Assembly: GCF_041860085.1 (NCBI RefSeq)
Contig: NZ_CP124747.1
Span: 2,542,001-2,606,000, forward strand
Reading direction: 5' to 3'
From: Schlesneria sp. DSM 10557
Lineage (GTDB): Bacteria > Planctomycetota > Planctomycetia > Planctomycetales > Planctomycetaceae
DNA: 64,000 nucleotides
Shown: positions 3,074 to 22,708 of the stretch, in pieces
Layout: each line of letters begins with the position of its first letter
Position numbering within the stretch: the first letter of the stretch is position 1
The notes under the pieces: model-generated
Told to the model about the DNA's origin: nothing
The model's input: only the letters and a program-made list of their open reading frames with translations
Databases searched by the model: none
Program-made: the position numbers and the translations under genes

Positions 3074-3912
3074 ATGCGAATTACCCTGTCCATGTGGCCC
3101 CAGCGACGGCGGCCGAATACGACAGGGTCCAGGACGGTCCCAAAGTCTTTTCTCGATGATGCCCAGTGGAATTCAATCAAGGATCTGTTTGCGAACCCTC
3201 TTCCATCCCCGCTGGGAGGCCGACCACGAGTCGAGCCTCGACCGTGTCTGGAGGGAATTCTGTGGGTCCTGAAGAGCGGAGGACGATGGCAAGATTTACC
3301 AGAGCGATACCCCTCTCCTGCAACATGCTGGAGAAGGCTCAAGGAGTGGACGGAAAGAGGAATCATGGTGAAAACGTGGGAACGTCTCCTGAAGTCCCTT
3401 GATCGACAGAAGCGGCTGAACTGGTCGCAGGCAATGGGTGATGGCACCTTTTCGCCTGCAAAAAAGGGGGCGCCGAGGTTGGTAAGACCAAGAAAGGCAA
3501 AGGAACGAAACTCATGCTGATGACGGACGGTAACGGCGTCCCCATCTCGGGGTTCACCATTTCTGCACAGGTCGCCGAAGTCAACACGATCGAGACGCTG
3601 GTCGACATTCAAGTTGCTGGCCAGAGACCAGAGAGGCTGCTGTACGATAAGGCGGCCGATGCGGATTGGGTTCGTGACACACTCCAACTGCGAGGTATCG
3701 AGCAAATCACACCCCACCGAAAAGGCCGGAAGAAGCCGTCTCGACAAGACGGGCGAAGCCTGAGGAGATATGCGAGTCGCTGGAAAGTCGAACGCACGAT
3801 CAGCTGGTTAGGCTATCAGAGAAGACTTCTTGTCCGGCATGAATACTACCCGCATCTCTTCGAAGGTTTTTTCCACCTCGCCTGCCTAATGATATGCTTG
3901 AACCGGTTTTGA
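3074..3912 (+). CDS. IS5-family transposase made by -1 ribosomal frameshift (orfA+orfB)
   Basis: OrfA (3074-3520) begins with the IS5 N-terminal helix-turn-helix region (FLDDAQWNSIKDLF, GILWVLKSGGRWQDLPERY) and reaches the first catalytic aspartate in MGDGTF. OrfB (open from upstream, ATG at 3514, stop 3912) continues with MLMTDGNGVPI, the second aspartate region LLYDKAADADW, and the glutamate region RWKVERTISWLGYQRRL. The heptamer A_AAA_AAG at 3460-3466 is in the zero frame of orfA. Slipping back one base there reads straight into orfB with the family sequence GGAEVGKTKKGKGTKLMLM. This is a standard way for IS5/IS427 elements to express the full DDE enzyme. Both frames look intact, so the element may be active. 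Confidence 0.85.
3460..3466 (+). promoter_or_regulatory. -1 frameshift slippery heptamer A_AAA_AAG
   Basis: The heptamer lies in the orfA reading frame (codons GCA AAA AAG), and the -1 frame from 3466 is open through to 3912. It is followed by a run of five Gs and GC-rich sequence that could slow the ribosome. Confidence 0.75.
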
Positions 3913-4168
3913 AACTGCTTCTAGCCTCCACTGCTCGAATGATTTCACACGGGTCAATCCCGAAGGCTCGGCAAAACACCAGGAATTCCGCGACATCGAT
4001 GCGTCGCTCGCCAGATTCGCATTTTGAAATGAATGATTGAGGACGTCCCAATCGCGCCGCAGCTTCAATTTGCGTAAGCCCCGCGGCAATTCTGGCATTT
4101 TTCAATTCTGCCAAGAACCGAGCGTACGTCGGCGTGTAAAGCGACTTTGGGAGCCTATCCATAACCAT
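3800..4168 (-). pseudogene. XRE-family transcriptional regulator, 3' end replaced by IS sequence
   Basis: This is a small helix-turn-helix regulator that starts at the ATG at 4168 (a second ATG at 4162 is also possible). A classic XRE HTH spans residues 17-65, with GLTQIEAAARLGRPQSFISK as the core. The native reading ends at about residue 82 (EIIRAVEA). After that the frame runs through the inverted repeat of the IS5-type element and stops at 3800, adding about 40 foreign residues. Since such proteins often end shortly after this point, DNA binding may survive. It is divergent from the biosynthetic operon at 4343, with an inverted repeat just upstream of its start, so it is the likely local regulator. 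Confidence 0.75.
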
Positions 4169-4193
4169 GCGCGGATAGTAGAATCCCAAGTTG

Positions 4194-4216
4194 GAATATC
4201 CCGTTTTAGGATATTC
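4194..4216. promoter_or_regulatory. Perfect inverted repeat, candidate XRE operator
   Basis: GAATATCC (4194-4201) and GGATATTC (4209-4216) form an 8-bp perfect inverted repeat with a 7-bp spacer. It lies in the 174-bp intergenic region between the divergent XRE gene and the glycosyltransferase gene, 26 bp from the XRE start. Two half-sites facing each other fit a dimeric HTH protein; the assignment is inference. Confidence 0.5.
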
Positions 4217-4342
4217 GTGAGCGCACTCAGCCACCGACAATGTCGAGATACGCGTTTTTCTGATGGTCGCAGCCGCAGGGACAGATTCACTGCGAATTGA
4301 CTGCGCATCCAAACAACCTGGTGTCAAACGCAGGCTGATCAA

Positions 4343-5404
4343 ATGCAAAACTCTGATCTTATTGACTCTTTTCGGGACACGACCACAGGGAGTCACGTCG
4401 GAATACCTGTGTCGACGCGTGCGGGTAGAAATGGCGCGTCGGAATCTTCCACTGAACGGATGGTTTCGATCTGCGTGGCATGCTGTTCGAACGGAACAAT
4501 TCCACAATCCCTTCCGGTAATCATCAATGCGATCGGCTCAGCGGCATCCGTCAGGGCGGTCATACTTTCTGAAGCTAGGGTGCAACCGGATGAAAGTATC
4601 GAAATCTTGACAGTGCCACATGGAACGAAGTTGTCGAAAATCCGACATCTTTCCGATTCAATTGAGACTGACCTCTTCTGCATCTTTGATCCCGATCTCA
4701 CCGCCAATCAAGAGGCGTGCCGGACGATTTTCCAGCTTGCGATTGAGGCTTTTCGAACAGGTGAAGACGTCCTTTCGTTCGGCATTATTGAGGGAGCGGA
4801 TACCGGAACGCTTCTTGCCAAGGTGGTCGCGATCGACAAATGGTATTCCCACCGAATAATTCGGCGATGCCTGTGGGCATGTGGAATCGGTATCACCATA
4901 CCCGGACAGTTTTTTGTCATCTCTGCCAACCTTCTTGGTAACCTCGATCCGCAAATCGACTCTTACCTTGATGATCTCGTCATTGGATGGCTCGCTTGGA
5001 AGAAGGACGTTCGGGTCCAGCGTGTGGCAGTTGTCGTTGGACAAGAGCATCCGAGGAGTTGCTGGGCGAGTCTTCTCACGCAGCGAATTCGGTGGATGCG
5101 AGGGATCGCTTCACTTTTCGGTTGCCTCTCCAACAGCCCCGCCGCGATTGGCCTCCTGGTAGCTCATTGGATCGCCTACCACGGAATTCCGATCGCCGGA
5201 TTGGTTGGAACCGTCTGCTTAGCAGAGATCAACTTCGTTGCTGGTATTTGCGCGTTAGTCATCCTGGGGGCAGTCGTCTCCTTCTGCTCCGGTCGTTCAT
5301 TCCGGTCCGCTGCCGCGTTTCTGACTGTGTTCCCGGTGATTCATCTGTTTGCCACGGTGATGTGGTGGATTCCATTGAGCCGTACGACGCTGACGAGGAG
5401 ATGA
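4343..5404 (+). CDS. Family-2-like membrane glycosyltransferase
   Basis: 353 residues if the ATG at 4343 is used. The N-terminal 40 residues look unstructured and an ATG at 4460 is an alternative. The nucleotide-sugar fold begins around VSICVACC. A DxD-type motif, DPD (residues 117-119), a LDD acidic motif (209-211) and QRIRW (247-251, the Q-x-x-RW signature) match processive or membrane-bound GT2 enzymes such as hyaluronan or cellulose synthase relatives. Three hydrophobic segments follow (about 265-345), placing the catalytic domain at the cytoplasmic face of the membrane. The stop overlaps the start of the next gene (ATGA), so the two are translationally coupled. It probably adds a sugar to, or builds a lipid-linked glycan for, the product of this operon; the acceptor is unknown. 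Confidence 0.75.
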   Translation: MQNSDLIDSFRDTTTGSHVGIPVSTRAGRNGASESSTERMVSICVACCSNGTIPQSLPVIINAIGSAASVRAVILSEARVQPDESIEILTVPHGTKLSKIRHLSDSIETDLFCIFDPDLTANQEACRTIFQLAIEAFRTGEDVLSFGIIEGADTGTLLAKVVAIDKWYSHRIIRRCLWACGIGITIPGQFFVISANLLGNLDPQIDSYLDDLVIGWLAWKKDVRVQRVAVVVGQEHPRSCWASLLTQRIRWMRGIASLFGCLSNSPAAIGLLVAHWIAYHGIPIAGLVGTVCLAEINFVAGICALVILGAVVSFCSGRSFRSAAAFLTVFPVIHLFATVMWWIPLSRTTLTRR

Positions 5405-6687
5405 CTGTGAAGACGGAATCACTGGCCAAAGCATATGTTTTGACACACGGTGTGCATTTCACACCGTCCGCGTTGCGTTTTGCGTCTCAAGTCAATGCGA
5501 AGCAGCAAAACGCCGTCTACAACCTTCCCGCGGCGGAAAAATCCAGAACTCATAAACACGACGAGACAATCACTTCACCCGCGTCTCGAAGTGAACAGCG
5601 ATTCAATCGACCGCAGGAGCTGTTTTTTACCGGAGATGACAAATACACCGTCTGTACATCAGCAGTAGCTCCCGTACCCGGCCGCGAGTGCGCCGTTGTT
5701 GACCTCTGCGATGACAGGTTGACTCTCGTGACTCCCTCGATTCCGGATATCGGCCGAAGGTTGAATCGGATCGAATTCGTCACGCGACCAAGCTACTACG
5801 ATAAACTCACTGCTACGGGCAGGTCGGTTCAGCGATGGGTCAGTGCGTGCGGCTACGACGAAATGAATATTTGGCCCTGGCACGATTGTGCGATCAGTCG
5901 AACGTGCAGCTTCTGCGGGATCAACGCCGTCGAAAAAAAGGCTGGGCGGAATCTGGATCTGATCCATGCAGTTGATATGCGGCGAGAAATTGATGTCGAC
6001 AGCTACTGGCTGACGGTCCGCGACGAGGTAGTGTCCGAAATCCTCCAGGCAGTCGATCTCGCAATTGATGATGACTGTTATCAGGACGAGATCCACCTCA
6101 TCCTCATTTCGGGGAACCTTGCCGACAATCAGTTGGATGCTCAAGCAAGGATCTATGCAGACTTGGCGAACGCAATTACCCGCCGACATCCAGCCCGCTT
6201 CGCTGAGGGGGCTGTTGCAGTGACTGCTCCACCTTCAGATCTCGGACTACTGCGAGTCATGCGTGAGAATGGAATCGAAGTCGGAGTTTTCAATCTCGAA
6301 GCCTTTTCGCCAAGTGCCTTCGAAAGCCACTGTCCCGGCAAGTGTCGGATCGGGAGGGATCGTTATCTGAAAACCCTTGAAGCGGGAGTTGATGTCTTCG
6401 GCTGGGGAAAAAGCTGGTGCAACTTCGTGCTGGGTTTGGAGTCTCCCACAGATTTGCTCGCTGGTTGCGAGTATCTGGCATCAAGAGGTGTGACCCCTGG
6501 TGCAAATGTGCTGCATCGTGACCACGGTGCCAGTTTGCGGCTCGATCCGCCGACGCCGGAAACAGTCGTCGATTTCTATCGGCAACTCGCGAATATCTGC
6601 CGCCGACACGAGCACCGTCCCTACTACTGTCAACTAGCCCTGCGAACGAGTCTCGCCAACGAAGCTTTTGCCGGTCGGTTGGATTGA
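5401..6687 (+). CDS. Radical SAM enzyme with atypical Cx5CxxC cluster motif
   Basis: 428 residues from the ATG at 5401, which overlaps the stop of the glycosyltransferase. The frame is open much further upstream, but that is antisense-like readthrough inside the previous gene. C163, C169 and C172 in CAISRTCSFC form a Cx5CxxC motif instead of the usual Cx3CxxC. A known family with that spacing is HmdB of [Fe]-hydrogenase cofactor synthesis, which is biotin-synthase-like. After the motif come barrel-like segments, including LILISGNLADNQLDAQAR and GVDVFGWGKSWCNFVLGLES. The N-terminal 160 residues are a family-specific extension. It should bind a 4Fe-4S cluster and cleave S-adenosylmethionine. 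The substrate is unknown; neighbours suggest it modifies a methylated, ligated small molecule. Family placement beyond radical SAM is inference. Confidence 0.75.
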   Translation: MTVKTESLAKAYVLTHGVHFTPSALRFASQVNAKQQNAVYNLPAAEKSRTHKHDETITSPASRSEQRFNRPQELFFTGDDKYTVCTSAVAPVPGRECAVVDLCDDRLTLVTPSIPDIGRRLNRIEFVTRPSYYDKLTATGRSVQRWVSACGYDEMNIWPWHDCAISRTCSFCGINAVEKKAGRNLDLIHAVDMRREIDVDSYWLTVRDEVVSEILQAVDLAIDDDCYQDEIHLILISGNLADNQLDAQARIYADLANAITRRHPARFAEGAVAVTAPPSDLGLLRVMRENGIEVGVFNLEAFSPSAFESHCPGKCRIGRDRYLKTLEAGVDVFGWGKSWCNFVLGLESPTDLLAGCEYLASRGVTPGANVLHRDHGASLRLDPPTPETVVDFYRQLANICRRHEHRPYYCQLALRTSLANEAFAGRLD

Positions 6688-6726
6688 GTTTCCCGCTCTG
6701 AATCAATCTTTATCGTTAGAAACGTC

Positions 6727-7815
6727 ATGCCCGATCGCCCCATAACCGGCCACGATGCTCAACTCTACATCAATCACGTTCAAGATCACGATCTTCAAAG
6801 AGATACGCAGTGGTTACTTGACGTAGGACGGTTCCCTGTCGGTTGCCGTGTGCTTGACATTGGTTGTGGTACGGGAGCCCTCGTTTCAGCACTGGTAACC
6901 GACGAAAACTTTGCCCGCTCAGTTATCGGGGTCGAATTGTCGCAACCGCTAGCCGACTTTGCCGCCAAAAAAGTCGTCGGCACGAATGGTTCCGTCTTCC
7001 ACGACGACTTCCTTTCGTGGACACCGCCGTACGGCTGGCAACCTGATACGTTGGTGATGTCCTATTTCTTGCACCATTGCGACAATCCCCAAGAACACCT
7101 CGAACGCGCGGCATCCATACTTCCTCACGGCGGTCGACTCTACGTCGTCGATCGGATCGCCATTGATCAGCCGTCGCTTGATACATTCCCTCGTTTCTGG
7201 GATGAGCGTTACCGTGCGGCACACGAGTGGTCAGAAGCAATGCCTCAACTCATGACGTTCGATGAACTTGTCGAGTCAGCCAATAGATCAGGCTTTGAAT
7301 TCGTTCGCAAACAGACATGTCCGCACGACAAGCGTATCGGAGCCGAGCGGTTTCCAAAGACGTTCCTGGAGTTTTGGCGATGCGAATCGGAGCGACACTT
7401 TCCAGCCGTGATGGTCGTCTCGCCGAATCATCGTGGCGTTGTCGATGAGATCGTGCAGTGTCTGGACAAAGCCGAACTGCGAGTCTCGCGGTTTCAATCT
7501 GTGATTTATTCCGACGAACTGATTCGCACGATTTATCGACACTGTCCGTGGCGAGAGGCGTTGATCCGGTTTGTTGGCGAAGTTTGTCGGGATCGGCGCG
7601 CGACCGCACTGTGGATATCAGGCGATCCGACCTCACCTGACTTGTTGTATCGACTGGGACAATTCAAGAAGCGCTATCGTGACCGCTGGCACAATATCAA
7701 TGGTCCGACGACCGCAAACGGCGTCAGAGCCATCATTCTTCCATTTCACGTCGCGGAGCCATACGAATCCGAGGCGCTAGCAAGCTTGATCGAAAAGTCG
7801 GGGAGCGGTTGTTGA
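6727..7815 (+). CDS. SAM methyltransferase fused to a nucleoside-diphosphate-kinase-like domain
   Basis: 362 residues; 39 bp after the radical SAM gene. Residues 35-200 are a class I methyltransferase: motif I is VLDIGCGTG (42-50), followed by an acidic residue at E70 and a SYFLHH motif region (112-117). Residues about 226-355 resemble the nucleoside diphosphate kinase fold: AVMVVSPNHRGVVDEIV at its start looks like the NDPK lysine-proline-aspartate strand, and FHVAEPYESEAL (340-351) resembles the catalytic H-G-S-D-x-x-E-S segment, with H341 in the histidine position. The resemblance is by eye and may reflect a non-catalytic domain. The protein is cytoplasmic. The methyltransferase call is firm, the C-terminal call tentative. 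It ends 2 bp before the most likely start of the next gene. Confidence 0.75.
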   Translation: MPDRPITGHDAQLYINHVQDHDLQRDTQWLLDVGRFPVGCRVLDIGCGTGALVSALVTDENFARSVIGVELSQPLADFAAKKVVGTNGSVFHDDFLSWTPPYGWQPDTLVMSYFLHHCDNPQEHLERAASILPHGGRLYVVDRIAIDQPSLDTFPRFWDERYRAAHEWSEAMPQLMTFDELVESANRSGFEFVRKQTCPHDKRIGAERFPKTFLEFWRCESERHFPAVMVVSPNHRGVVDEIVQCLDKAELRVSRFQSVIYSDELIRTIYRHCPWREALIRFVGEVCRDRRATALWISGDPTSPDLLYRLGQFKKRYRDRWHNINGPTTANGVRAIILPFHVAEPYESEALASLIEKSGSGC

Positions 7816-7817
7816 TC

Positions 7818-9191
7818 ATGGATTTCGTCATCGCAGGGGTGTCGTTTCCGTGTGGTGTCAGAGAGCTGGGCGACGTCGCGACTCGGCATGGATTTAATCC
7901 AATTTATGTCGACCATCCACACAACGCTGAATCCATCAAAGACAAATTAGAGCCGTTGCTTCTGGAATCGGCCCTTTCCGAGAATTTGAGACGGCGACAT
8001 GGTGTTTACTTGCCGCTGCTGGAAAGCTGGGTAACTCAAGGGATAGCACTACCGGACGAAGCCAAGCTGCAATTCGATAAACGTGCGGGAATAATCAGCC
8101 GTTCCAAGATTGCGCTGACATTGGCATTGGTTGACGCAAATCTCAGTTTTGTCCCTCGTTTACCAGTTCACAACTTGGATGATGCCATGAACGCCGCTGT
8201 GAAATGCGGCTATCCCGTTGTCTTGAGATCCGACTGCGGATATTCGGGGCGGGGAGTTTCGGTCGTCCATTCACCCGGTGACCTTAGATGTCACTGGAAA
8301 AGCCAAGCTGAAGCCGGAGAGAACCACGACTATGTTGAGATGCGGTCGATATTGGGTTCATTCGAAGACGTGAAAGTGGTGGAACCGTGGCTGAATGGAG
8401 ACGAATGGAGCATCGATTGCATCGTTGGGCCAACAGCGGTCCACTTGATTCGGGTTTGCGAAAAAGTGGTTGCGATTGTTGCAGGCAGACCCGTCACGCT
8501 TGGGTACCGAATCATTGATTCAGAGGATCTATTCGAGGAACTGATGTGGATCGCTCCGCAGTGGTGCCGCGCTTTATACGCGATGGACGCGATCTCATTC
8601 GCGAGTTTCGACGTCCGTCGAAATCAGAACGGAGACCTCGTACCGTTGGACTTTGGAACTCGTCTTGGAGGGGATTGCATACCATATCTTGTCCGAAAGG
8701 CCGAGCACGGCGTGAATATCTATGCCGATGCTTTGGATGCCGCTTTGTCCGGAAGCGGGCGTGCGTTTTCGCGATTGGAGAAAGGTCATGCGATCGTGCA
8801 TGCGTTCGCTCAAGATCCAGGTATCTTTTCAGGCATCTCCGCAATCAACCACGGTGAGATCGTGAGTATGAAACCGCGTGGATTTATTGTCGGTCAGGCA
8901 GAGGGCGCACAGACATTTCGCAAGATTGGCTCGATCTTGACGCATTTCCGTACCTACGACGAATTTCGTTTCGCATGCCTCAATTTAGCGGCGCGGAAGC
9001 GAGAGGACACCAATAGAACGTCTCGCGGCCGGGGTGAGTGGAGTTCACTTGAGTGCAATCACAATCATTCTGTTAGCCGTGATGCGATTACGCAGTCTCG
9101 TGAGCCGTGTGTATGCTTCTATAACGTTGAAATCTCCAAAACGGAGAATCTTTCAACTTCATCCCGACATGACAAGTCGGAACCGGCTTAA
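7818..9191 (+). CDS. ATP-grasp domain ligase
   Basis: 457 residues from the ATG at 7818. An in-frame TTG at 7809 overlaps the previous gene, but the GGGAGCGG ribosome site is better spaced for the ATG. An N-terminal pre-ATP-grasp domain spans residues 1-100. The ATP-grasp core shows the flexible glycine loop DCGYSGRGVSVV (139-150), EPWLNGDEWSIDCIV (189-203) and the metal/phosphate site DFGTRLGGD (278-286), a variant of the usual E-x-N-P-R-x-G-G. The overall pattern is nearest to carbamoyl-phosphate-synthase-like and biotin-carboxylase-like enzymes that join a carboxylate to an amine or other nucleophile. The last roughly 60 residues (after R393) look unlike the rest and end at the IS66 boundary, so the natural C-terminus may have been replaced. 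Last gene of the operon. Confidence 0.75.
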   Translation: MDFVIAGVSFPCGVRELGDVATRHGFNPIYVDHPHNAESIKDKLEPLLLESALSENLRRRHGVYLPLLESWVTQGIALPDEAKLQFDKRAGIISRSKIALTLALVDANLSFVPRLPVHNLDDAMNAAVKCGYPVVLRSDCGYSGRGVSVVHSPGDLRCHWKSQAEAGENHDYVEMRSILGSFEDVKVVEPWLNGDEWSIDCIVGPTAVHLIRVCEKVVAIVAGRPVTLGYRIIDSEDLFEELMWIAPQWCRALYAMDAISFASFDVRRNQNGDLVPLDFGTRLGGDCIPYLVRKAEHGVNIYADALDAALSGSGRAFSRLEKGHAIVHAFAQDPGIFSGISAINHGEIVSMKPRGFIVGQAEGAQTFRKIGSILTHFRTYDEFRFACLNLAARKREDTNRTSRGRGEWSSLECNHNHSVSRDAITQSREPCVCFYNVEISKTENLSTSSRHDKSEPA

Positions 9192-9281
9192 CCGATTTCA
9201 ACCCTTCTTCGCCCATGCGCTGAGTCGGCAGAGCGAAGTAAGCGCACGGTGAAGTAGGCCCCCGTGGATGAGATTGGGGGT

Positions 9282-11028
9282 TCAGTGTTTCTTTCTCTTG
9301 TTGGCTTTTTGCTGTTTGGACCTTTGGCGTTCTTTTTTGCGGATCGTTTCGATCTTCCAGCGGTGCTCGGGATGGGCCTTCAGCCATTGATCGGGGAGCA
9401 GGTCTGTCAGGTCGGGGGATCTGCTCCCGTGCGTAGTCGTTGGGGAGTTCCTCCGGGACTGCTCGCAGCCAGTGCCACGGTTCTACCTCGCAGTACTTGG
9501 CACTGCCGACCAGACTGAGCAGGATCGCAGCGCGATGACCTCCCTGTTCGCCGCCGACGAACAGCATGTTCTTCCGCAGGATGGCGGGGGCTTCATCATC
9601 CGCTCCGCCAGATTATTATCGATCTGCAGTGCACCGTCGTCGGTGTAGCGGCAGGTCGCCTCCCACTGATTCAGTGTGTAGGTGAAGGCCTGTCCGATCG
9701 GACTCTTGGGGAGTACCGGTTTTGCTCTTCGTTCAGCCAGCTGCGGAAGGTCTTGAGAATCCCAACCGCATGCTGCTGGCGTGCGTCACGCAGTGATGCA
9801 CCGCTCAGCCCTGCCGCTTCGAATTCAGACTCCAGTTGATACAACCGTGAGATGTAGCCCAGCCGCTTCGTACGCCCGTCGCGCATCGGTGTGACTGGCC
9901 TCCTGCCAGTACCGGCGGCAATGTGCCATGCAGGCGACTTCTGTCACCTGTTCTTTGGCATAGATCTGGTCGTACCCGCTGAAGGCATCCGCCTGCAGAT
10001 AACCCGAGAAGCCTTCCAGAAACCGGGACGGGTTCCTCCCAGCGCGCGTCAGGCTGAATTCGTAGGCGACATACGGATGAGCGGGATCGCCGATATACGT
10101 CCAGAACTTGCAGTTCTGGCACTGACCTTCGGACAGCATTTTGATGCTCGTGTCATCGGTATGGATCACACCCGATTGTCGCACACGCTGGCACAGCAGG
10201 TCGTACAAGGGGTCAGCAGATCGGCCATCGACGCCACCCAGTCACACAGTGTGCTTCGCCGCAGGAGAAGCCTGTAGCGCGAGAGAATGTCTTCCATCCG
10301 ATACAGCGGAAGGTAGTCTCCATACTTGGACACGATCAGGTTCGCCAGCAGTCCCGGTCCCGGCAGGCCTTTGTCGATCGGTTGCGGTGGCTTGGGAGCC
10401 AGCACCACATGCTCTTCGCAGCCCCGGCAGGCGTAAAGCGCACTCGTTCGTGCCGAATCGCCTTGAGACGGGCGGGGATGAATTCCAGCTGCTCGCTGAC
10501 CTCACGTCCGATCTCGCGCGTAACTCTCCACAGCAGGGACACTGTCGCTCTTGCTCCGTCAGTTCATGGACGATGGTTTCCCGCGGAATCTCAGGCGGGA
10601 TGGGACGTCGGCCATGCCCCTTGGGCTTGGCGGCCCCAGCGACTCGTCCGGGGGCAGCGAACCATCGTCGGTCGAAACCGAATCCTGCTGATCCGCTTCA
10701 GTTCGCGAATCAGTTCCGCCAGTTCTTCGGGTGTGAACAGGGTCAGCTGATTCGGATCGACCCGTTCCTTACGCGGCCCGTAGCGTTCACGAAGCAGGCG
10801 AGCCAGTTGCTCATGCACACGTTCCAGTTTGGCCTGCTGCTGCTCAACCACGTCGTGCAATGACGTGATCACCATTTCTTTCTGCGCGATGACGGCGCGA
10901 TGTCCCACGATCTCGATGTCGCGCTGTAGAAGGACGGCCTCTCTTCGGGCGATGACCGCATCACGTGCGGCGATCATCGCCTTGAGCTGCTCAACGTCAT
11001 CAGGAAGAATGGAGCCATCCGTACTCAT
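9282..11028 (-). pseudogene. tnpC: tnpC of IS66 copy 1, frameshifted
   Basis: The coding sequence aligns along its whole length with the intact 583-residue transposase at 20857-22608. It is broken by several indels: a lost G in the GCTGGGGGCC run (near 10650), a lost C in GCGCCGAGATC (near 10520), a 2-bp gain near 10435, a gained G near 9865, a lost A near 9710 and a lost C near 9420. Substitutions are far fewer (for example Leu to Pro before EELP). It starts with MSTDGSILPDD at 11028. No full-length product is possible from this copy. Confidence 0.9.
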
Positions 11029-11771
11029 GCCCTGTCATACGCCCGAACCCCCAAAAACGTTTCAAGTAATTTGGGATTTTTCTGTATTTTCCCAATCGGG
11101 ATAGGGGTCCGCCTCGCGGCGGAACCCTCCCACACCACCGTGCGTACGGGTCCGTACACGGCGGTTCAGGTTGGTTAAGCGGGTTTGGGTGTTAGTCGAG
11201 GAATTCCTAACGACATGAAGAAGTCGGTGGGGAAGGCGATGTGGAGAGCAGGACTTTACTGATCCGCCACGGGCCGTGACAGCTTCCTGCAGTTTGAGCC
11301 GCAAGATCGCGTGAGACTTGCCCTTTGCGGAGCCTCGGCAAATTTGTTCCCGCCCCGTCGCCATTGTTTCCAAAGAAAGGCCCGCAGCCTTCGATGGACC
11401 CACGAGTCAAGGTCACGCAACACACTGGGTGTTTCGCAAGCACCGAAGTACCCACGCCAGCCCTGCAGATAACGTGACAAGCTTGTCACTAGCTGCTCCA
11501 GACTGACCCCACGTGTCCGACGCGTCAGTTCTCGAATCTTCTCCTTAAATCGCTGGAGGGCCGTCGGCGCGATTCGCCGCTTCGGCTTCCGGTGATTCGT
11601 GAAGCTGAAACCGAGAAACTTTCGTTCCCACGGGCGAGCCACCGCACTTTTGGTCTCGTTGACCTGAGCTTCAGTCGTGTGGTCAGAAAGCGAGTCACAC
11701 TCGCCATCACTCGTTCACCCGCTCGGCGGCTGTTCACATAGATGTTGCAGTCGTCGGCATACCGGGCATAA

Positions 11772-13285
11772 CAGCCTGTTGAAAAACTCCCAAAAGCCAA
11801 TATCCCTGATATACTCAACGGGCCTTGTTGAGAAGATGGTATCTGGAGGATTTGGCGGTGTCGCTGGGGAAGCGTGAATCAGAGAGTCAACGGGAATTCT
11901 GGCTGGAGACGGATCGTCTGGCGACCGGTCCGGGACATGTGTTTTACGACAAACTCAATCGCTTGCTGCGTGAACACGGGTTTGATCTGTTCGTCGAGCA
12001 GTTGTGCCAGCCGCACTACAAGAGTGGTGGCCGCCCTTCGATTCCTCCGTGCGTCTACTTTCGAATGCTGATGATTGGCTATCTGGAAGGGATCGACTCT
12101 CAGCGGGGAATCGCCGGCGGTGCGAAGACTCCTTGGCGCTGCGGCGTTTTCTGGGAATCAGCCTGTCGGAAGAGACTCCTGACCACAGCAGTCTGACTCG
12201 TATCCGTGATCGGTTACCGCTGTCGGTTCACGAGGAAGTCTTTCAGTACATCCTGTTTGTGATCGAGGAACAGGGCCTACTGAAGGCCGGGACGGTCGGA
12301 GTGGACTCAACGTACCGGAAGCCAACGCGGCGATGAAGTCCATTATCCGCAAAGATACGGGGAAGACTGGAAGGAGTACCTGAAGCGGTTGATGAAGGAA
12401 GAGGGCCTGCTGGGAGGGAGATGACGACCCGACGGATGAGGAACTGCGGCGGTTCGACCAGCAGCGAGCGAAACGAGGAAAGAAGAAGGTCTCCAACGCC
12501 GAATGGGCCTCACGTACCGATCCTTCCAGTAAAATTGTGAAGATGAAGGACGGGCGCACTCACACGGGCTACAAGGCCGAGCACGTCATTGATCTGGAGA
12601 GTGAAGTCATCCTGTCCGCGACCGTTTACACGGGAACGGAAGGGGATTCGCAGACATTACTGGCGAGCGTTCTGACGGCTCAAACACACTTGGAACAGAG
12701 CGGAAGTTCCTGAAGATTGAAGAGGTGGTGGCTGACAAGGGGTATCACACGAACGAGCAGTTAGCCGGGGCAGAGGAGATGGACCTGCGGACCTATATCC
12801 CCAAGCCGAAGTCCCGTTACCGCCGTCGCTGGAAAGACAAACCTGTCGAGCAGCATAGGGCGGTGGCAAACAACCGCCGCCGGATGACTCGGGCGAAGGG
12901 AAAGAGCTTGCAGCGTGCTCGCAGCGAGAAGGTGGAGCGAAGTTTTGCCCACGTCTGTCGGACCGGGGGATCTCGAAGGACATGGCTACGAGGCCTGGCC
13001 AAGATCAACAAACGCTATCTGATGGTGGCTGCCACCCGGAATCTGGGAATCTTGATGCTCAAGCTGTTCGGAATGGGCAAACCGAGGACGCTGCACACGG
13101 CCGGGGCCGTATTTCGGCCATTATTCCGGTCTATAGTTCACTCAAAATCGCTCTCTGGAGCCATCATCGGCGACACTTCCCTCTACCGGCTACTTGCATG
13201 GCCTTCTGAGTCTGTCCGCCACATTTTCTCGCAAATACGAAAATCGGATGAAACCTCTGAAATTCACAGATTCTTCAACAGGCTG
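11772..13285 (+). mobile_element. IS with 4-bp target duplication inside the group II intron
   Basis: 1514 bp with terminal repeats starting CAGCCTGTTGAA at both ends (12 of the first bases identical, then diverging). It is flanked by the direct repeat ATAA at 11768-11771 and 13286-13289, so this was a clean insertion. It carries one frameshifted transposase gene on the plus strand. Confidence 0.88.
11825..13265 (+). pseudogene. IS1182/IS5-superfamily DDE transposase, frameshifted
   Basis: Three consecutive frames cover one transposase. The N-terminal DUF772-type region is VFYDKLNRLLREHGFDLFVE and IPPCVYFRMLMIGYLEGID. A second block, RFLGISLSEETPDHSSLTRI, follows, then a DDE core with VGVDST and GYKAEHVIDLESEVI. 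The last block has VVADKGYHTNEQL and the glutamate region ARSEKVERSFAHVC. Shifts fall near 12115, 12320, 12415 and 12715. The 5' end (TTG at 11825) is uncertain. The last frame runs on to the IS boundary without its own stop. Different from the IS1182 remnant at 2137. Non-functional as it stands. Confidence 0.8.
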
Positions 13286-14655
13286 ATAACGGAGACCACG
13301 TCGAATGAGTTCTGGTCGAGATCGTCCAGTACGATGTTCGATAGTAAGGGTGAAAGTGGACCGCCTTGCGGCGTTCCCTCGTCGGTCGGATTGACCAGCC
13401 CATCCTCCGGGACTCCCGCATTGAGAAATGCGCGAATCAGTCGCGATAGCCGGGGATCGTTGACCCGTTTCGCAATGCGTCCCATCAGGATATCGTGGTT
13501 GACTCGATCGAAGAATTTCTCCAAATCGAGGTCGACCACCCAGCGATAACCCTCGGCGATAAAGCCTTGTGCTGCTGTGACGGCTGGTGAGCCGAGCGAC
13601 CGGGTCGGAACCCATAGCTGTGCGGAGAGAATGTCGGCCCCATCGCGGTTGGAGGACTTGAAGAACCGCTTGTTGAATGAAACGGTCCGGGGCTGTCGGA
13701 ATGCCAAGCTTGCGCACCCCGCCGCCCGGCTTGGGAATTTCCACTCGTTTCACCGGTTGTGGTTCATAGTCCCCTTCAACAACCGTTCCCGAATGGCAGG
13801 CCAATGCTGCTTCAAGTGTTCCACGTGTCGTTGACAGTCACCCCGTCAGTTCCCGGTGCTCCCTTGTTGCCTCGAACTCGCTTTTGGCTGCTTCCTCCAG
13901 ATTTCGTCGTTCACAGACTTCCTCCATTAACGCTTCAAACTTTGCTGGGTTTTCAGGTTCCCTCTTCGCCATAGACGGTTCGGACCCTCCTCCTCCTGAG
14001 GCCCTCGGGACTTCATCCCTACTCTCCTCCGGAAAGGCCAAGTACTTCTGGATTTTCGGCCGCATGTCGTCCACGAGATTCAGGCCTTAATGGCCCCTCC
14101 ATTCAACCCCAGTTGGGGACCGTTCGGGCCTTCGCGGTTGTCACGGTTTCACCGAGCACGAGCTGTTTCTCCCCTTTCGAGCGAGTGTCCTGCCCGGCAA
14201 ACCGACGCCGCATACTACGCCCTCTGCTGACTTCTGCCGCTTGATCAGAGAATCTTGCGATCCTCTCAGTCTCGAATTCGGGACAAAACGGCAGATCTCC
14301 TGAGGTAAGTTTCTCCGCTTTCCACGCACAACCGCCGGATTTACGTTTTGCACTCTTGATGGATAAGGACTTCGCTGTCACGTGCCAGCTCGTCCAGTAC
14401 TCACGCCTCACATCCGGTTTCTATACGTCGGCTCGCGTGTTTGCTCCATGCTTCTTTCAGACGCTGCCTCACGGCAATCGACCTTGCACTTCGCTAATCC
14501 TTCACTTCCATCAGGTTGGATAAGGGACTTACACCCTCAAGCTGAGAAACATGCTCGGCACACACGAAAAACGTCCCTCCACGAATCGTCGTGGAGGACG
14601 ACTACCGAAGACATGGGACAGCATTCTGCCAGACAGTCTTACGACCGAACGAAGT

Positions 14656-15048
14656 TCACACTGAAGACCGCGCCGTGGTGTCATTGATTGCGCTCGGCCG
14701 TTCATAGCGAGGGCGTCGCTTCACGCTCCCTAGATCAATCCCCTCCAACAGCAGCAAAAGCTCCTCTGCGCGAATCTCGCAGCGGCGTGAGGTCTGTTCC
14801 TTCCGGTCGGTCGGGAACTCGTAACATCCTTTTTCCAACCGCTTGTAAAACAGGCTCCAGCCATCGCGATCCCACCACAGCAGCTTGATCCGGTCGCGAC
14901 GCTGGTTCCGAAACACAAACAGATGACCGGCAAACGGATCTTCTTCGATCACGCTCTCCACCGGGGCGTGAAGACCGTCAAACCCCTTCCGCATGTCTGT
15001 CGGCACTGTCGCCAGAAACACCCGTGTCGTGCGAGAGATGTTCAGCAT
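14656..15048 (-). CDS. tnpB: TnpB accessory protein of IS66 copy 1
   Basis: 130 residues, essentially identical to TnpB of copy 2 with one visible change (HAPVESV instead of HALVESV). The family motif MRKGFDGLHA and the segment RIKLLWWDRDGWSLFYKRLE are intact. The upstream frame is continuous with tnpA because two Gs are missing from the G run near the junction, so initiation could be altered. It is the only undamaged gene in this IS copy. TnpB is required for IS66 transposition together with TnpA and TnpC; its activity is not well defined. Confidence 0.85.
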   Translation of the reverse strand: MLNISRTTRVFLATVPTDMRKGFDGLHAPVESVIEEDPFAGHLFVFRNQRRDRIKLLWWDRDGWSLFYKRLEKGCYEFPTDRKEQTSRRCEIRAEELLLLLEGIDLGSVKRRPRYERPSAINDTTARSSV

Positions 15049-15454
15049 AATCGCCCCCGCAGACGAAGAGAGTTGTTCCGAGGGGATCTGCCGACAGGCG
15101 GTCAGCACACGAGTCAACACCTCGACACCCGCATCCTCACGTAACCGAACGACGAGACCGCCAGCACAGGCGATCTCAGCATCGCAGGCGGCAGCGAATC
15201 ACCCACCACCTTCATAGCCACCAGCCCCGCCATCCCGGTTCCCTGCGGGCGGGTGACCTGCGGATCATTGGTCCGCCGAACAGTCAACTCCTGATCGAGA
15301 CTCGAGAGCTGACGCCGCCAGTAATGAAACGTCGCCTCCGAAAGCCCGCGACGACGACAATAGCCCCGAATCGACTCCCCGACGAAGACTGACGCTCACA
15401 ATGGGAACGCCAGTACGACTCCTTCTCACGACTCCGTAAACCAACCTGCGACAT
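15042..15454 (-). pseudogene. tnpA: TnpA of IS66 copy 1, frameshifted
   Basis: Matches tnpA of copy 2 (start MSQVG at 15454), but loses frame after HCERQSSSG because of a small deletion where copy 2 has GGGGGAGTCG. It has another shift in the terminal G run, which fuses its end to tnpB. A helix-turn-helix-like accessory protein in the intact copy; broken here. Confidence 0.85.
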
Positions 15455-15534
15455 CTCGCCATCTCCACTCTGAAGGGTAACAAAACCCACTCAGACTAAA
15501 GCATGGCTCAAGATGCACTTCACCGTGCGCTTAC

Positions 15535-19814: not shown

Positions 19815-19894
19815 GTAAGCGCACGGTGAAGTGCATCTTGAGCCATGCTTTAGTCTGAGTGGGTTTTGTTACCCTTCAGAGTGGAGATGGCGAG

Positions 19895-20311
19895 ATGTCG
19901 CAGGTTGGTTCACGGAGTCGTGAGAAGGAGTCGTACTGGCGTTCCCATTGTGAGCGTCAGTCTTCGTCGGGGGAGTCGATTCGGGGCTATTGTCGTCGTC
20001 GCGGGCTTTCGGAGGCGACGTTTCATTACTGGCGGCGTCAGCTCTCGAGTCTCGATCAGGAGTTGACTGTTCGGCGGACCAATGATCCGCAGGTCACCCG
20101 CCCGCAGGGAACCGGGATGGCGGGGCTGGTGGCTATGAAGGTGGTGGGTGATTCGCTGCCGCCTGCGATGCTGGAGATCGCCTGTGCTGGCGGTCTCGTC
20201 GTTCGGTTACGTGAGGATGCGGGTGTCGAGGTGTTGACTCGTGTGCTGACCGCCTGTCGGCAGATCCCCTCGGAACAACTCTCTTCGTCTGCGGGGGGGC
20301 GATTATGCTGA
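19895..20311 (+). CDS. tnpA: IS66 TnpA accessory protein
   Basis: 138 residues from the ATG at 19895, which has a good ribosome site (GTGGAG) in front; a longer frame starts at 19859. The helix-turn-helix-like segment GYCRRRGLSEATFHYWRRQL is typical of the IS66 TnpA (IS3 OrfA-like) family, followed by a C-terminal part with ACAGGLVVRLREDAGVEVLT. Its stop overlaps the tnpB start (ATGCTGA), implying coupled translation. TnpA is needed for transposition together with TnpB and TnpC. Confidence 0.88.
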   Translation: MSQVGSRSREKESYWRSHCERQSSSGESIRGYCRRRGLSEATFHYWRRQLSSLDQELTVRRTNDPQVTRPQGTGMAGLVAMKVVGDSLPPAMLEIACAGGLVVRLREDAGVEVLTRVLTACRQIPSEQLSSSAGGRLC

Positions 20312-20697
20312 ACATCTCTCGCACGACACGGGTGTTTCTGGCGACAGTGCCGACAGACATGCGGAAGGGGTTTGACGGTCTTCACGCCCTGGTGGAGAGC
20401 GTGATCGAAGAAGATCCGTTTGCCGGTCATCTGTTTGTGTTTCGGAACCAGCGTCGCGACCGGATCAAGCTGCTGTGGTGGGATCGCGATGGCTGGAGCC
20501 TGTTTTACAAGCGGTTGGAAAAAGGATGTTACGAGTTCCCGACCGACCGGAAGGAACAGACCTCACGCCGCTGCGAGATTCGCGCAGAGGAGCTTTTGCT
20601 GCTGTTGGAGGGGATTGATCTAGGGAGCGTGAAGCGACGCCCTCGCTATGAACGGCCGAGCGCAATCAATGACACCACGGCGCGGTCTTCAGTGTGA
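20305..20697 (+). CDS. tnpB: IS66 TnpB accessory protein
   Basis: 130 residues, slightly longer than the usual 115 or so. The family signature TDMRKGFDGLHALVESVIEE and RIKLLWWDRDGWSLFYKRLE are present. It overlaps tnpA by 7 bp and is separated from tnpC by 159 bp that contain a terminator-like hairpin. Its molecular role in transposition is not established. Confidence 0.92.
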   Translation: MLNISRTTRVFLATVPTDMRKGFDGLHALVESVIEEDPFAGHLFVFRNQRRDRIKLLWWDRDGWSLFYKRLEKGCYEFPTDRKEQTSRRCEIRAEELLLLLEGIDLGSVKRRPRYERPSAINDTTARSSV

Positions 20698-20755
20698 ACT
20701 TCGTTCGGTCGTAAGACTGTCTGGCAGAATGCTGTCCCATGTCTTCGGTAGTCGT

Positions 20756-20790
20756 CCCTCCACGACGATTCGTGGAGGGACGTTTTTCGT
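20756..20790 (+). terminator. Stem-loop with T run between tnpB and tnpC of IS66
   Basis: CGTCCCTCCACGA and TCGTGGAGGGACG form a 13-bp stem with a very short loop, followed by TTTTT. It looks like an intrinsic terminator that would lower tnpC expression. In copy 1 the group II intron sits directly after the T run. Confidence 0.8.
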
Positions 20791-20856
20791 TGGGAAAATA
20801 CAGAAAAATCCCAAATTACTTGAAACGTTTTTGGGGGTTCGGGCGTATGACAGGGC

Positions 20857-22608
20857 ATGAGTACGGATGGCTCCATTCTTCCTGATGACGTTGAGCAGCT
20901 CAAGGCGATGATCGCCGCACGTGATGCGGTCATCGCCAGAAGAGAGGCCGTCCTTCTACAGCGCGACATCGAGATCGTGGGACATCGCGCCGTCATCGCG
21001 CAGAAAGAAATGGTGATCACGTCATTGCACGACGTGGTTGAGCAGCAGCAGGCCAAACTGGAACGTGTGCATGAGCAACTGGCTCGCCTGCTTCGTGAAC
21101 GCTACGGGCCGCGTAAGGAACGGGTCGATCCGAATCAGCTGACCCTGTTCACACCCGAAGAACTGGCGGAACTGATTCGCGAACTGAAGCGGGATCAGCA
21201 GGATTCGGTTTCGACCGACGATGGTTCGCTGCCCCAGGACGAGTCGCTGGGGGCCGCCAAGCCCAAGGGGCATGGCCGACGTCCCATCCCGCCTGAGATT
21301 CCGCGGGAAACCATCGTCCATGAACTGACGGAGCAAGAGCGACAGTGTCCCTGCTGTGGAGAGTTACGCGCCGAGATCGGACGTGAGGTCAGCGAGCAGC
21401 TGGAATTCATCCCCGCCCGTCTCAAGGCGATTCGGCACGAACGAGTGCGCTACGCCTGCCGGGGCTGCGAAGAGCATGTGGTGCTGGCTCCCAAGCCACC
21501 GCAACCGATCGACAAAGGCCTGCCGGGACCGGGACTGCTGGCGAACCTGATCGTGTCCAAGTATGGAGACTACCTTCCGCTGTATCGGATGGAAGACATT
21601 CTCTCGCGCTACAGGCTTCTCCTGCGGCGAAGCACACTGTGTGACTGGGTGGCGTCGATGGCCGATCTGCTGACCCCCTTGTACGACCTGCTGTGCCAGC
21701 GTGTGCGACAATCGGGTGTGATCCATACCGATGACACGAGCATCAAAATGCTGTCCGAAGGTCAGTGCCAGAACTGCAAGTTCTGGACGTATATCGGCGA
21801 TCCCGCTCATCCGTATGTCGCCTACGAATTCAGCCTGACGCGCGCTGGGAGGAACCCGTCCCGGTTTCTGGAAGGCTTCTCGGGTTATCTGCAGGCGGAT
21901 GCCTTCAGCGGGTACGACCAGATCTATGCCAAAGAACAGGTGACAGAAGTCGCCTGCATGGCACATTGCCGCCGGTACTGGCAGGAGGCCAGTCACACCG
22001 ATGCGCGACGGGCGTACGAAGCGCTGGGCTACATCTCACGGTTGTATCAACTGGAGTCTGAATTCGAAGCGGCAGGGCTGAGCGGTGCATCACTGCGTGA
22101 CGCACGCCAGCAGCATGCGGTTGGGATTCTCAAGACCTTCCGCAGCTGGCTGAACGAAGAGCAAAACCAGGTACTCCCCAAGAGTCCGATCGGACAGGCC
22201 TTCACCTACACACTGAATCAGTGGGAGGCGACCTGCCGCTACACCGACGACGGTGCACTGCAGATCGATAATAATCTGGCGGAGCGGATGATGAAGCCTC
22301 CCGCCATCCTGCGGAAGAACATGCTGTTCGTCGGCGGCGAACAGGGAGGTCATCGCGCTGCGATCCTGCTCAGTCTGGTCGGCAGTGCCAAGTACTGCGA
22401 GGTGGAACCGTGGCACTGGCTGCGAGCGGTCCTGGAGGAACTCCCCCAACGACTTCGCACGGGAGCAGATCCCCCCGACCTGACAGACCTGCTCCCCGAT
22501 CACTGGCTGAAGGCCCATCCCGAGCACCGCTGGAAGATCGAAACGATCCGCAAAAAAGAACGCCAAAGGTCCAAACAGCAAAAAGCCAACAAGAGAAAGA
22601 AACGCTGA
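20857..22608 (+). CDS. tnpC: IS66 transposase TnpC
   Basis: 583 residues, full length. Domains in order: a coiled-coil/leucine-zipper region (residues 15-85), a proline-rich linker, and a zinc-finger-like CPCC (164-167) with CRGC (201-204). The DDE catalytic core of IS66 follows, with D292/D293 in HTDDTSIK, D348 in LQADAFSGYD and E476 in NNLAERMMKP. The C-terminal region FVGGEQGGHRAAILLSLVGS and a basic tail complete it. It catalyses cut and join of the element ends. All motifs are intact, so it could supply transposase in trans to copy 1. Confidence 0.95.
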   Translation: MSTDGSILPDDVEQLKAMIAARDAVIARREAVLLQRDIEIVGHRAVIAQKEMVITSLHDVVEQQQAKLERVHEQLARLLRERYGPRKERVDPNQLTLFTPEELAELIRELKRDQQDSVSTDDGSLPQDESLGAAKPKGHGRRPIPPEIPRETIVHELTEQERQCPCCGELRAEIGREVSEQLEFIPARLKAIRHERVRYACRGCEEHVVLAPKPPQPIDKGLPGPGLLANLIVSKYGDYLPLYRMEDILSRYRLLLRRSTLCDWVASMADLLTPLYDLLCQRVRQSGVIHTDDTSIKMLSEGQCQNCKFWTYIGDPAHPYVAYEFSLTRAGRNPSRFLEGFSGYLQADAFSGYDQIYAKEQVTEVACMAHCRRYWQEASHTDARRAYEALGYISRLYQLESEFEAAGLSGASLRDARQQHAVGILKTFRSWLNEEQNQVLPKSPIGQAFTYTLNQWEATCRYTDDGALQIDNNLAERMMKPPAILRKNMLFVGGEQGGHRAAILLSLVGSAKYCEVEPWHWLRAVLEELPQRLRTGADPPDLTDLLPDHWLKAHPEHRWKIETIRKKERQRSKQQKANKRKKR

Positions 22609-22708
22609 ACCCCCAATCTCATCCACGGGGGCCTACTTCACCGTGCGCTTACGCATTTGCGCGATCGAAACTCTGCCGCCTGTCATTCAGAGCATGAAAC
22701 ATCGAGCT

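What the first reader, a model, noticed from the sequence alone, without database searches (positions are those of the whole stretch)
4168..9191. Orphan operon of glycosyltransferase, Cx5CxxC radical SAM, methyltransferase-NDPK and ATP-grasp enzymes
Four enzyme genes of unrelated classes are packed with an ATGA overlap, a 39-bp gap and a 2-bp gap. They sit beside a divergent XRE regulator with a perfect inverted repeat and are flanked by IS elements. Membrane GT2, radical SAM, methyltransferase and ATP-grasp together are the toolkit of a small-molecule or cofactor pathway, but no known cluster with this set comes to mind. Seen: gene order, motifs, spacing. Inference: one shared product.
Basis: partly seen in the sequence, partly recalled or inferred. 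Interest (0 to 1): 0.82.

Follow-up and report, generated by a model that had tools for sequence, protein, structure and literature searches.

The report
Unstudied paired glycosyltransferase–radical enzyme genes
Four neighbouring enzyme genes, two of which turn up as a pair in very different bacteria, probably build a sugar-containing small molecule that matches no described pathway I could find.

Summary
The four packed genes are real and as described, and they belong together. A two-pattern scan of the species-genome collection with the radical SAM protein alone gave 13 loci, in about five phyla by their names. All 13 carry a homologue of the membrane GT2, beside the radical SAM gene in 12 of 13. 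An NDPK-like domain, fused or free, occurs in 8 of 13 and the ATP-grasp enzyme in 5 of 13. Only Salegentibacter lacus has all four, reordered. GT2 and radical SAM tree distances correlate (r = 0.78; 0 of 5000 permutations). The locus is rare: among 397 sampled genomes of its class and 392 of its phylum only its own matches.

No characterised pathway matched; the literature searches were few and open-access only. Best reading: a horizontally moving biosynthetic module with a constant GT2 + Cx5CxxC radical SAM core. The NDPK-like domain (no Pfam match), methyltransferase and ATP-grasp ligase are add-ons. It would make a glycosylated, radical-modified metabolite. The unit is well supported; chemistry and product are inferred, partly from sugar-activating and carbamoyl-transfer genes in relatives.

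The parts
3800..4168 (-). divergent XRE-family regulator (HTH_3/HTH_31); its 3' end runs into the IS5-side sequence
   Evidence: Pfam HTH_31 43.4 bits, HTH_3 38 bits (scanned from 4198); frame and start; no homologue in L002-L014 at E <= 1e-3
4194..4216 (.). perfect inverted repeat GAATATCC-N7-GGATATTC, possible operator
   Evidence: 45 of 2000 shuffles as good
4343..5404 (+). membrane-bound family 2 glycosyltransferase, core gene 1
   Evidence: PF13641 24.5 bits, below its 27-bit cut-off; DxD, LDD, QxxRW and hydrophobic C-terminus; invariant residues in 13 aligned members
5401..6687 (+). Cx5CxxC radical SAM protein, core gene 2
   Evidence: NCBIfam NF045502 variant_rSAM 154.8 bits, cut-off 125; C163, C169, C172 invariant in 87 aligned members; model pLDDT 93.4
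6727..7374 (+). class I SAM methyltransferase domain (about residues 1-216)
7375..7815 (+). NDPK-like domain with an invariant histidine (His341)
   Evidence: no Pfam match; profile alignment to Ndk P = 1.2e-4, 0 of 100 column shuffles reach the score; invariant P, Y, W, K, R, H, E in 9 members
7818..9191 (+). ATP-grasp ligase; about 57 C-terminal residues without counterpart in aligned relatives
   Evidence: PF02786 25.2 bits, cut-off 19.8; alignments
3074..3912 (+). upstream IS5-family transposase in two overlapping frames
   Evidence: first frame NF033580 89.1 bits, cut-off 110; frames
9238..11095 (.). start of the downstream IS66-like element (family recalled), broken; part of it again at 14564-15534
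   Evidence: 99% identical to 20790-22652, inverted

Best explanation
A horizontally moving biosynthetic module with a two-gene core. Shown by sequence: a membrane GT2 and a Cx5CxxC radical SAM protein occur together across phyla with correlated trees, and the other genes vary as add-ons. Inferred: the GT2 transfers a sugar from an NDP-sugar to a membrane-associated acceptor; the radical SAM enzyme abstracts hydrogen from the glycosylated intermediate or its precursor and rearranges, dehydrates or couples it; the NDPK-like domain moves a phosphate through its invariant histidine to or from a sugar-phosphate or nucleotide intermediate; the fused methyltransferase caps the product; the ATP-grasp enzyme activates a carboxylate as acyl phosphate and joins it to an amine, probably with an amino acid. 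The XRE protein is a likely local repressor. The product would be a small glycosylated metabolite, dispensable and used in particular niches.
For: GT2 homologue in 13 of 13 loci chosen by radical SAM alone. Tree distances correlate, r = 0.78 over 13 loci and 0.71 over 11 without two near-duplicates, 0 of 5000 permutations each. ATP-grasp against radical SAM r = 0.88 over 6 loci, 3 of 720 permutations. All four in L002, reordered. Shared contig lengths for three of the families. Active-site motifs present and conserved. Sugar genes in relatives: HldE-like, GHMP kinase-nucleotidyltransferase and GT9 in L012, SDR epimerase/dehydratase and carbamoyltransferase in L007, with homologues in other loci. 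Patchy, IS-flanked distribution.
Against: No substrate or product is known. The GT2 could equally build a surface glycan. 5 of 13 loci lack any detected NDPK-like domain and 8 of 13 lack the ATP-grasp enzyme, so these cannot be essential to the shared core step, unless they lie beyond the contig ends in the short loci. The GT2 of L002 groups elsewhere in its tree. In L008 the GT2 homology is split by an intervening reading frame. Pfam scores of the window's GT2 fall below the cut-off.
Confidence: 0.45

Rival explanations
1. The set decorates a cell-surface glycan or glycolipid: the GT2 adds a sugar to a lipid carrier and the other enzymes modify it (radical deoxygenation or sulfur insertion, methylation, amino-acid amide).
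For: GT2 C-terminal hydrophobic segments; best solved relatives of the GT2 profile are cellulose and chitin synthases, E 0.003-0.014; HldE-like, GT9 and other sugar genes in some relatives.
Against: No polymerase or flippase family appeared among the 30 genes of relatives scanned with Pfam, a partial scan; the set is very patchy (only the own genome among 397 sampled of its class), unlike a core envelope function.
Confidence: 0.25
2. The set makes a modified nucleotide or nucleoside that acts in defence, as viperins make ddhNTPs (recalled); the NDPK-like domain or the dTMP-kinase-like proteins of relatives would phosphorylate it.
For: NDPK-like domain; dTMP-kinase-like gene in L012 with homologues in L005, L010 and L013 (which pooled them with the HldE-like genes); two loci (L004, L008) sit beside a shared block with helicase, PIN, AAA_2 and small radical SAM genes, whose L004 members match defence models MkoA (230 bits), PDC-M37B (98.8 bits) and, weakly, pVip (27.8 bits); the window methyltransferase matches the mad2 model over residues 25-144 (57.1 bits).
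Against: No defence model matches the radical SAM, GT2 or ATP-grasp at E <= 0.001; the mad2 and orphan-methyltransferase matches cover only the common methyltransferase part, and helicase and AAA models are broad. A membrane GT2 and sugar-activating genes fit poorly.
Confidence: 0.12
3. The radical SAM enzyme works as NitD of the Nit1C (cyanide assimilation) cluster and the set serves nitrogen or nitrile metabolism.
For: Same NCBIfam domain family NF045502 as the MSMEG_0568-like proteins and a weak TIGR04043 match.
Against: TIGR04043 57.2 bits against a cut-off of 303.7. Nit1C is described as nitrilase NitC, SAM-superfamily NitD, acetyltransferase NitE, AIR-synthase-type NitF and oxidoreductase NitH (PMC11049912, passages); none of these partners appeared among the relatives' genes that I scanned, but not every gene was scanned.
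Confidence: 0.04
4. Four unrelated genes thrown together among IS elements.
For: Dense IS environment.
Against: Joint occurrence in 13 of 13 loci for the core and correlated trees and shared contig lengths for the rest; tight spacing.
Confidence: 0.02

Closest known systems
NCBIfam NF045502 variant radical SAM / NitD of Nit1C (TIGR04043)
   Same: Family match over the NF045502 cut-off (154.8 vs 125 bits)
   Different: TIGR04043 far below its cut-off; gene partners differ
HcgA (HmdB) of FeGP cofactor synthesis
   Same: Cx5Cx2C motif, described as unique to HcgA in PMC10100467 (passages); HydE, PylB and BioB, to which that paper likens HcgA, appear among the fold matches
   Different: No HcgA/HmdB-type model appears among NCBIfam matches at E <= 1; gene partners differ
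Lipoyl synthase LipA/LIAS
   Different: NosL (16.4) and HydG (16.0) are close behind, and plain Foldseek ranks ThiH first; the N-terminal Cx4Cx5C of LipA (recalled) is not seen
Nucleoside diphosphate kinase (PF00334)
   Same: Same order of helices and strands in the model (order of Ndk recalled), remote profile similarity, histidine at the corresponding place (my own reading)
   Different: Lacks the KPD and HxSD motifs by which the 12 Ndk sequences were picked; no Pfam match; fused to a methyltransferase or free at about 220 aa
ATP-grasp ligases of the CPSase/biotin carboxylase/L-amino-acid ligase superfamily
   Same: PF02786 over the cut-off; YSGRG loop
   Different: Only partial, weak matches to solved members

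Membership tests
NF045502 variant radical SAM | score over curated cut-off | tested here: met
   154.8 vs 125 bits
NF045502 variant radical SAM | three cluster-binding cysteines conserved | tested here: met
   C163, C169, C172 invariant in 87 rows
Nit1C NitD (TIGR04043) | score over curated cut-off | tested here: not met
   57.2 vs 303.7 bits
HcgA/HmdB | Cx5Cx2C motif | tested here: met
   residues 163-172; motif per PMC10100467
HcgA/HmdB | family profile match | tested here: inconclusive
   not among matches at E <= 1; presence of such a model in the library was not checked
Lipoyl synthase | N-terminal Cx4Cx5C auxiliary-cluster motif (recalled) | tested here: not met
   read off the window protein as aligned
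Canonical NDPK (PF00334) | Pfam match | tested here: not met
   none at E <= 1 for the window protein or any of 9 domain members
Canonical NDPK (PF00334) | catalytic histidine at the conserved place | tested here: inconclusive
   histidine invariant in 9 of 9; hhalign aligns only the part before it, so its equivalence is my reading
Canonical NDPK (PF00334) | NDPK fold by structure search | tested here: inconclusive
   the methyltransferase domain filled the list; residues after about 220 hardly tested
Glycosyltransferase family 2 | Pfam cut-off | tested here: not met
   window 24.5 vs 27 bits; its homologue in L002 passes, 36.8 vs 27 for PF13632
Glycosyltransferase family 2 | DxD, ED-type and QxxRW motifs | tested here: met
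ATP-grasp | Pfam cut-off | tested here: met
   PF02786 25.2 vs 19.8 bits
Any characterised biosynthetic cluster | same gene set in a described pathway | tested here: inconclusive
   no paper held the term sets; two papers seen only as listing; the library lacks most subscription journals
All candidate families | enzyme activity | not testable with these tools
   needs biochemistry

The most novel reading that the evidence does not exclude
GT2 + Cx5CxxC radical SAM is the defining pair of an undescribed, widely mobile class of biosynthetic loci in about five phyla, doing radical chemistry on a membrane-tethered glycoside. It would be served by a new, NDPK-derived phosphotransferase family and give a new class of bioactive glyco-metabolites.
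Probability: 0.27. Interest if true: 0.82.

Novelty: new variant of a known kind. Interest (0 to 1): 0.62.

Why it matters
A membrane glycosyltransferase and a non-canonical radical SAM enzyme that stay paired in distant bacteria point to an unknown type of sugar chemistry. The window holds a compact version (four genes, about 5 kb), small enough to express whole. The NDPK-like domain has no Pfam match and carries a testable invariant histidine. The core occurs in lineages as different as planctomycetes, Bacteroidota, Proteobacteria and Firmicutes (names), so a product would be relevant well beyond this genome.

Tried and rejected
Plasmids: 459 records match the radical SAM, all under 60% identity, 1 covering 80% of the query; the 20 rows shown are about 24-26% identical, many named MSMEG_0568-family. 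No plasmid match for the methyltransferase-NDPK (E <= 1e-15), the L007 radical SAM (E <= 1e-30), the L012 GT2 (E <= 1e-10) or the L007 NDPK-like protein (E <= 1e-5). IMG/VR: 32 pattern matches, no relative. Phage collection: one record, fetched as L050; of the cassette families only the radical SAM matches there and its genes look bacterial, so dropped. L036 and L037 are distant radical SAM contexts; L036 shows no GT2 (best E 0.30) and L037 was not searched. tRNA genes in the window: none. The Cx5Cx2C literature search gave four papers, of which I read passages of one; the Nit1C search gave 20, 8 listed, of which I read passages of one. Solved-structure sequence searches with the radical SAM and the NDPK-like domain gave no row below E 0.02. 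Families absent from the Foldseek and VIA-align lists are not thereby excluded. 'Chance packing' was rejected.

Full report
OBSERVATION. The genes and spacing are as reported: GT2 4343-5404, radical SAM 5401-6687 with an ATGA overlap, methyltransferase with extra C-terminal domain 6727-7815 after 39 bp, ATP-grasp 7818-9191 after 2 bp. Catalytic motifs are present. The divergent XRE gene starts at 4168 and a perfect 8+8 inverted repeat lies at 4194-4216; 45 of 2000 shuffles of the intergenic stretch do as well, so it is only suggestive. IS5- and IS1182-family matches lie upstream (below the curated cut-offs) and an IS66-like element begins at 9238. The cassette is 53.1% G+C, the window 56.2%. 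Protein searches of the own genome find one copy each of the radical SAM and the GT2; the NF045502 family has one further match there, below its cut-off (23.1 bits).

THE NDPK-LIKE DOMAIN. Pfam does not see it. Profile-profile comparison with 12 real Ndk sequences (own genome and 11 relatives) gives P = 3e-4 for the fused form alone. In one search, 1 of 30 column shuffles came to P = 0.0025 and none lower, the reversed profile gave 0.086, unrelated profiles of this set gave 0.038-0.21 against Ndk, and the small untrimmed alignment A4 gave only 0.0086. With the free-standing relatives trimmed and added P = 1.2e-4, score 31.8, while the best of 100 shuffles scores 17.2. Only about 72 columns align, so this is remote similarity; that the invariant histidine sits at the Ndk catalytic place is my own reading. 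The domain recurs fused to the methyltransferase in the window, L002 and L006, and free (about 220 aa) in L003, L004, L007, L008, L011 and L014. Its fold was not tested by structure search, because the methyltransferase filled the list.

CO-OCCURRENCE. The scan of genome contigs by two radical SAM peptide patterns gave 53 pattern matches, of which 15 encoded relatives, in 13 loci: Salegentibacter, a Bacteroidales MAG, a Planctomycetaceae MAG, Undibacterium, Thiosymbion, Burkholderia sp., Zoogloea, Cupriavidus, Acetobacter, Evansella, a Lachnospiraceae MAG, Anaerotignum and a Synergistales bacterium. Two fixed patterns miss relatives, so 13 is a lower bound; the count of five phyla is from my knowledge of these names. 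A GT2 homologue is present in 13 of 13: next to the radical SAM in 12, and one gene further on in L002; in L008 it is in two pieces around an intervening frame. NDPK-like domain 8 of 13, ATP-grasp 5 of 13, methyltransferase fusion 2 of 13, all four 1 of 13 (L002). Some loci are cut by contig ends (for example L009, L010, L014), and L007/L008/L011 and L012/L013 are close relatives, so independent counts are lower. Tree distances of GT2 and radical SAM correlate at r = 0.78 (13 rows, window included; 0 of 5000 permutations) and 0.71 without two near-duplicates (11 rows); the GT2 of L002 groups differently. The GT2 of L008 is left out there.

METAGENOME PROTEINS. Comparing the longest-contig lengths in the lists lengths (own genome included) occur for all three families. 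Of 19 methyltransferase lengths of 10 kb or more, 15 recur with the radical SAM and 16 with ATP-grasp; 2 recur with neither. Of 23 ATP-grasp lengths of 10 kb or more, 18 recur with the radical SAM, 16 with the methyltransferase, 3 with neither. This is a proxy: equal length is taken as the same contig, only the 120 listed of 247 radical SAM hits could be used (119 lengths), and two generic methyltransferase hits and two rows without a contig were left out. Below 10 kb the share falls (20 of 30 at 5 kb, 24 of 39 at 3.5 kb, methyltransferase with radical SAM), as expected for short contigs but also open to real absence.

RARITY AND MOVEMENT. Among 397 sampled genomes of the class (E <= 1e-30) and 392 of the phylum (E <= 1e-25), samples that overlap, only the own genome matches the radical SAM. 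With the IS environment and the wide, thin spread, horizontal transfer is the simplest reading. No XRE homologue is found in L002-L014, so regulation would be local.

WHAT THE VARIANTS SAY. In L012 the core sits with a HldE-like kinase/adenylyltransferase, a GHMP kinase-nucleotidyltransferase, a dTMP-kinase-like protein, a GT9, a SufS-like aminotransferase-class-V protein, a metallo-beta-lactamase-fold protein and a PP-loop protein; several of these recur in L005, L009, L010 or L013. L007 has an SDR epimerase/dehydratase and a NodU-type carbamoyltransferase; SDR homologues occur in L005, L008, L011 and L014, carbamoyltransferase homologues in L005 and L011. So many of the add-ons are sugar-activating, sugar-modifying or carbamoyl-transferring. 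This is the main ground for inferring a glycosylated product. Exact roles (such as UDP-xylose synthesis by the SDR) are guesses: the curated equivalog models are all below cut-off. Against a purely sugar-based reading: two loci lie beside a block with defence-type helicase and AAA matches, and L004, L006 and L012 hold neighbours with no Pfam match.

LITERATURE. No paper was found for MSMEG_0568 with radical SAM, for the gene combination or for NF045502. I read passages of PMC10100467 (Cx5Cx2C in HcgA) and PMC11049912 (Nit1C); PMC7794033 and PMC8868522 were seen only in a listing. The library omits most subscription journals, so absence from print is not shown.

VERDICT. Function is inferred. 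Ranked: glycosylated small metabolite 0.45, surface glycan decoration 0.25, nucleotide-based defence 0.12.

Noticed in passing
window 9238-11095 and 14564-15534 versus 19815-22652: One IS66-like element (family recalled) lies uninterrupted at about 19815-22652; a 99% identical inverted copy is split in two by about 3.5 kb of other sequence.
   Followed up: partly
window 11207-11818 and 13190-13804 (minus strand): Frames that look like group II intron reverse transcriptase/maturase fragments (recalled, not searched), inside the split IS66-like copy or next to its edge.
   Followed up: no
window 3074-3912: IS5-family transposase in two overlapping frames; either programmed frameshifting or a broken copy.
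   Followed up: no
window 4975-6684: The radical SAM frame stays open far upstream through the GT2 gene (570 codons); a close relative (P0002, 566 aa) was perhaps given too early a start for the same reason.
   Followed up: partly
L008 2406-4968: In the Zoogloea locus the GT2 homology is in two pieces around an intervening frame that looks like a transposase (recalled).
   Followed up: partly
L004 27-7949 and L008 6248-16110: A shared five-gene block (AAA_11/AAA_12 helicase, PIN_4 protein, unknown, AAA_2, small Fer4_12 radical SAM) lies beside the GT2-radical SAM pair in both loci in different orientation; its L004 members match the defence models MkoA (230 bits), PDC-M37B (98.8 bits) and weakly pVip.
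   Followed up: partly
L050 (MT835476.1): A record filed as a bacteriophage carries a variant radical SAM gene among genes that look bacterial (sugar-kinase-like, ABC transporter, TetR-like; recalled).
   Followed up: partly
L004 11261-12493, L006 7597-8493, L012 4363-5031 and 7171-9018: Proteins near the core with no Pfam match at the thresholds used; possible further pathway genes.
   Followed up: no
L002 14811-15536 and 16502-17629: A DUF4145 protein and a WYL/WCX-domain regulator lie downstream of the four-gene set of Salegentibacter lacus.
   Followed up: no
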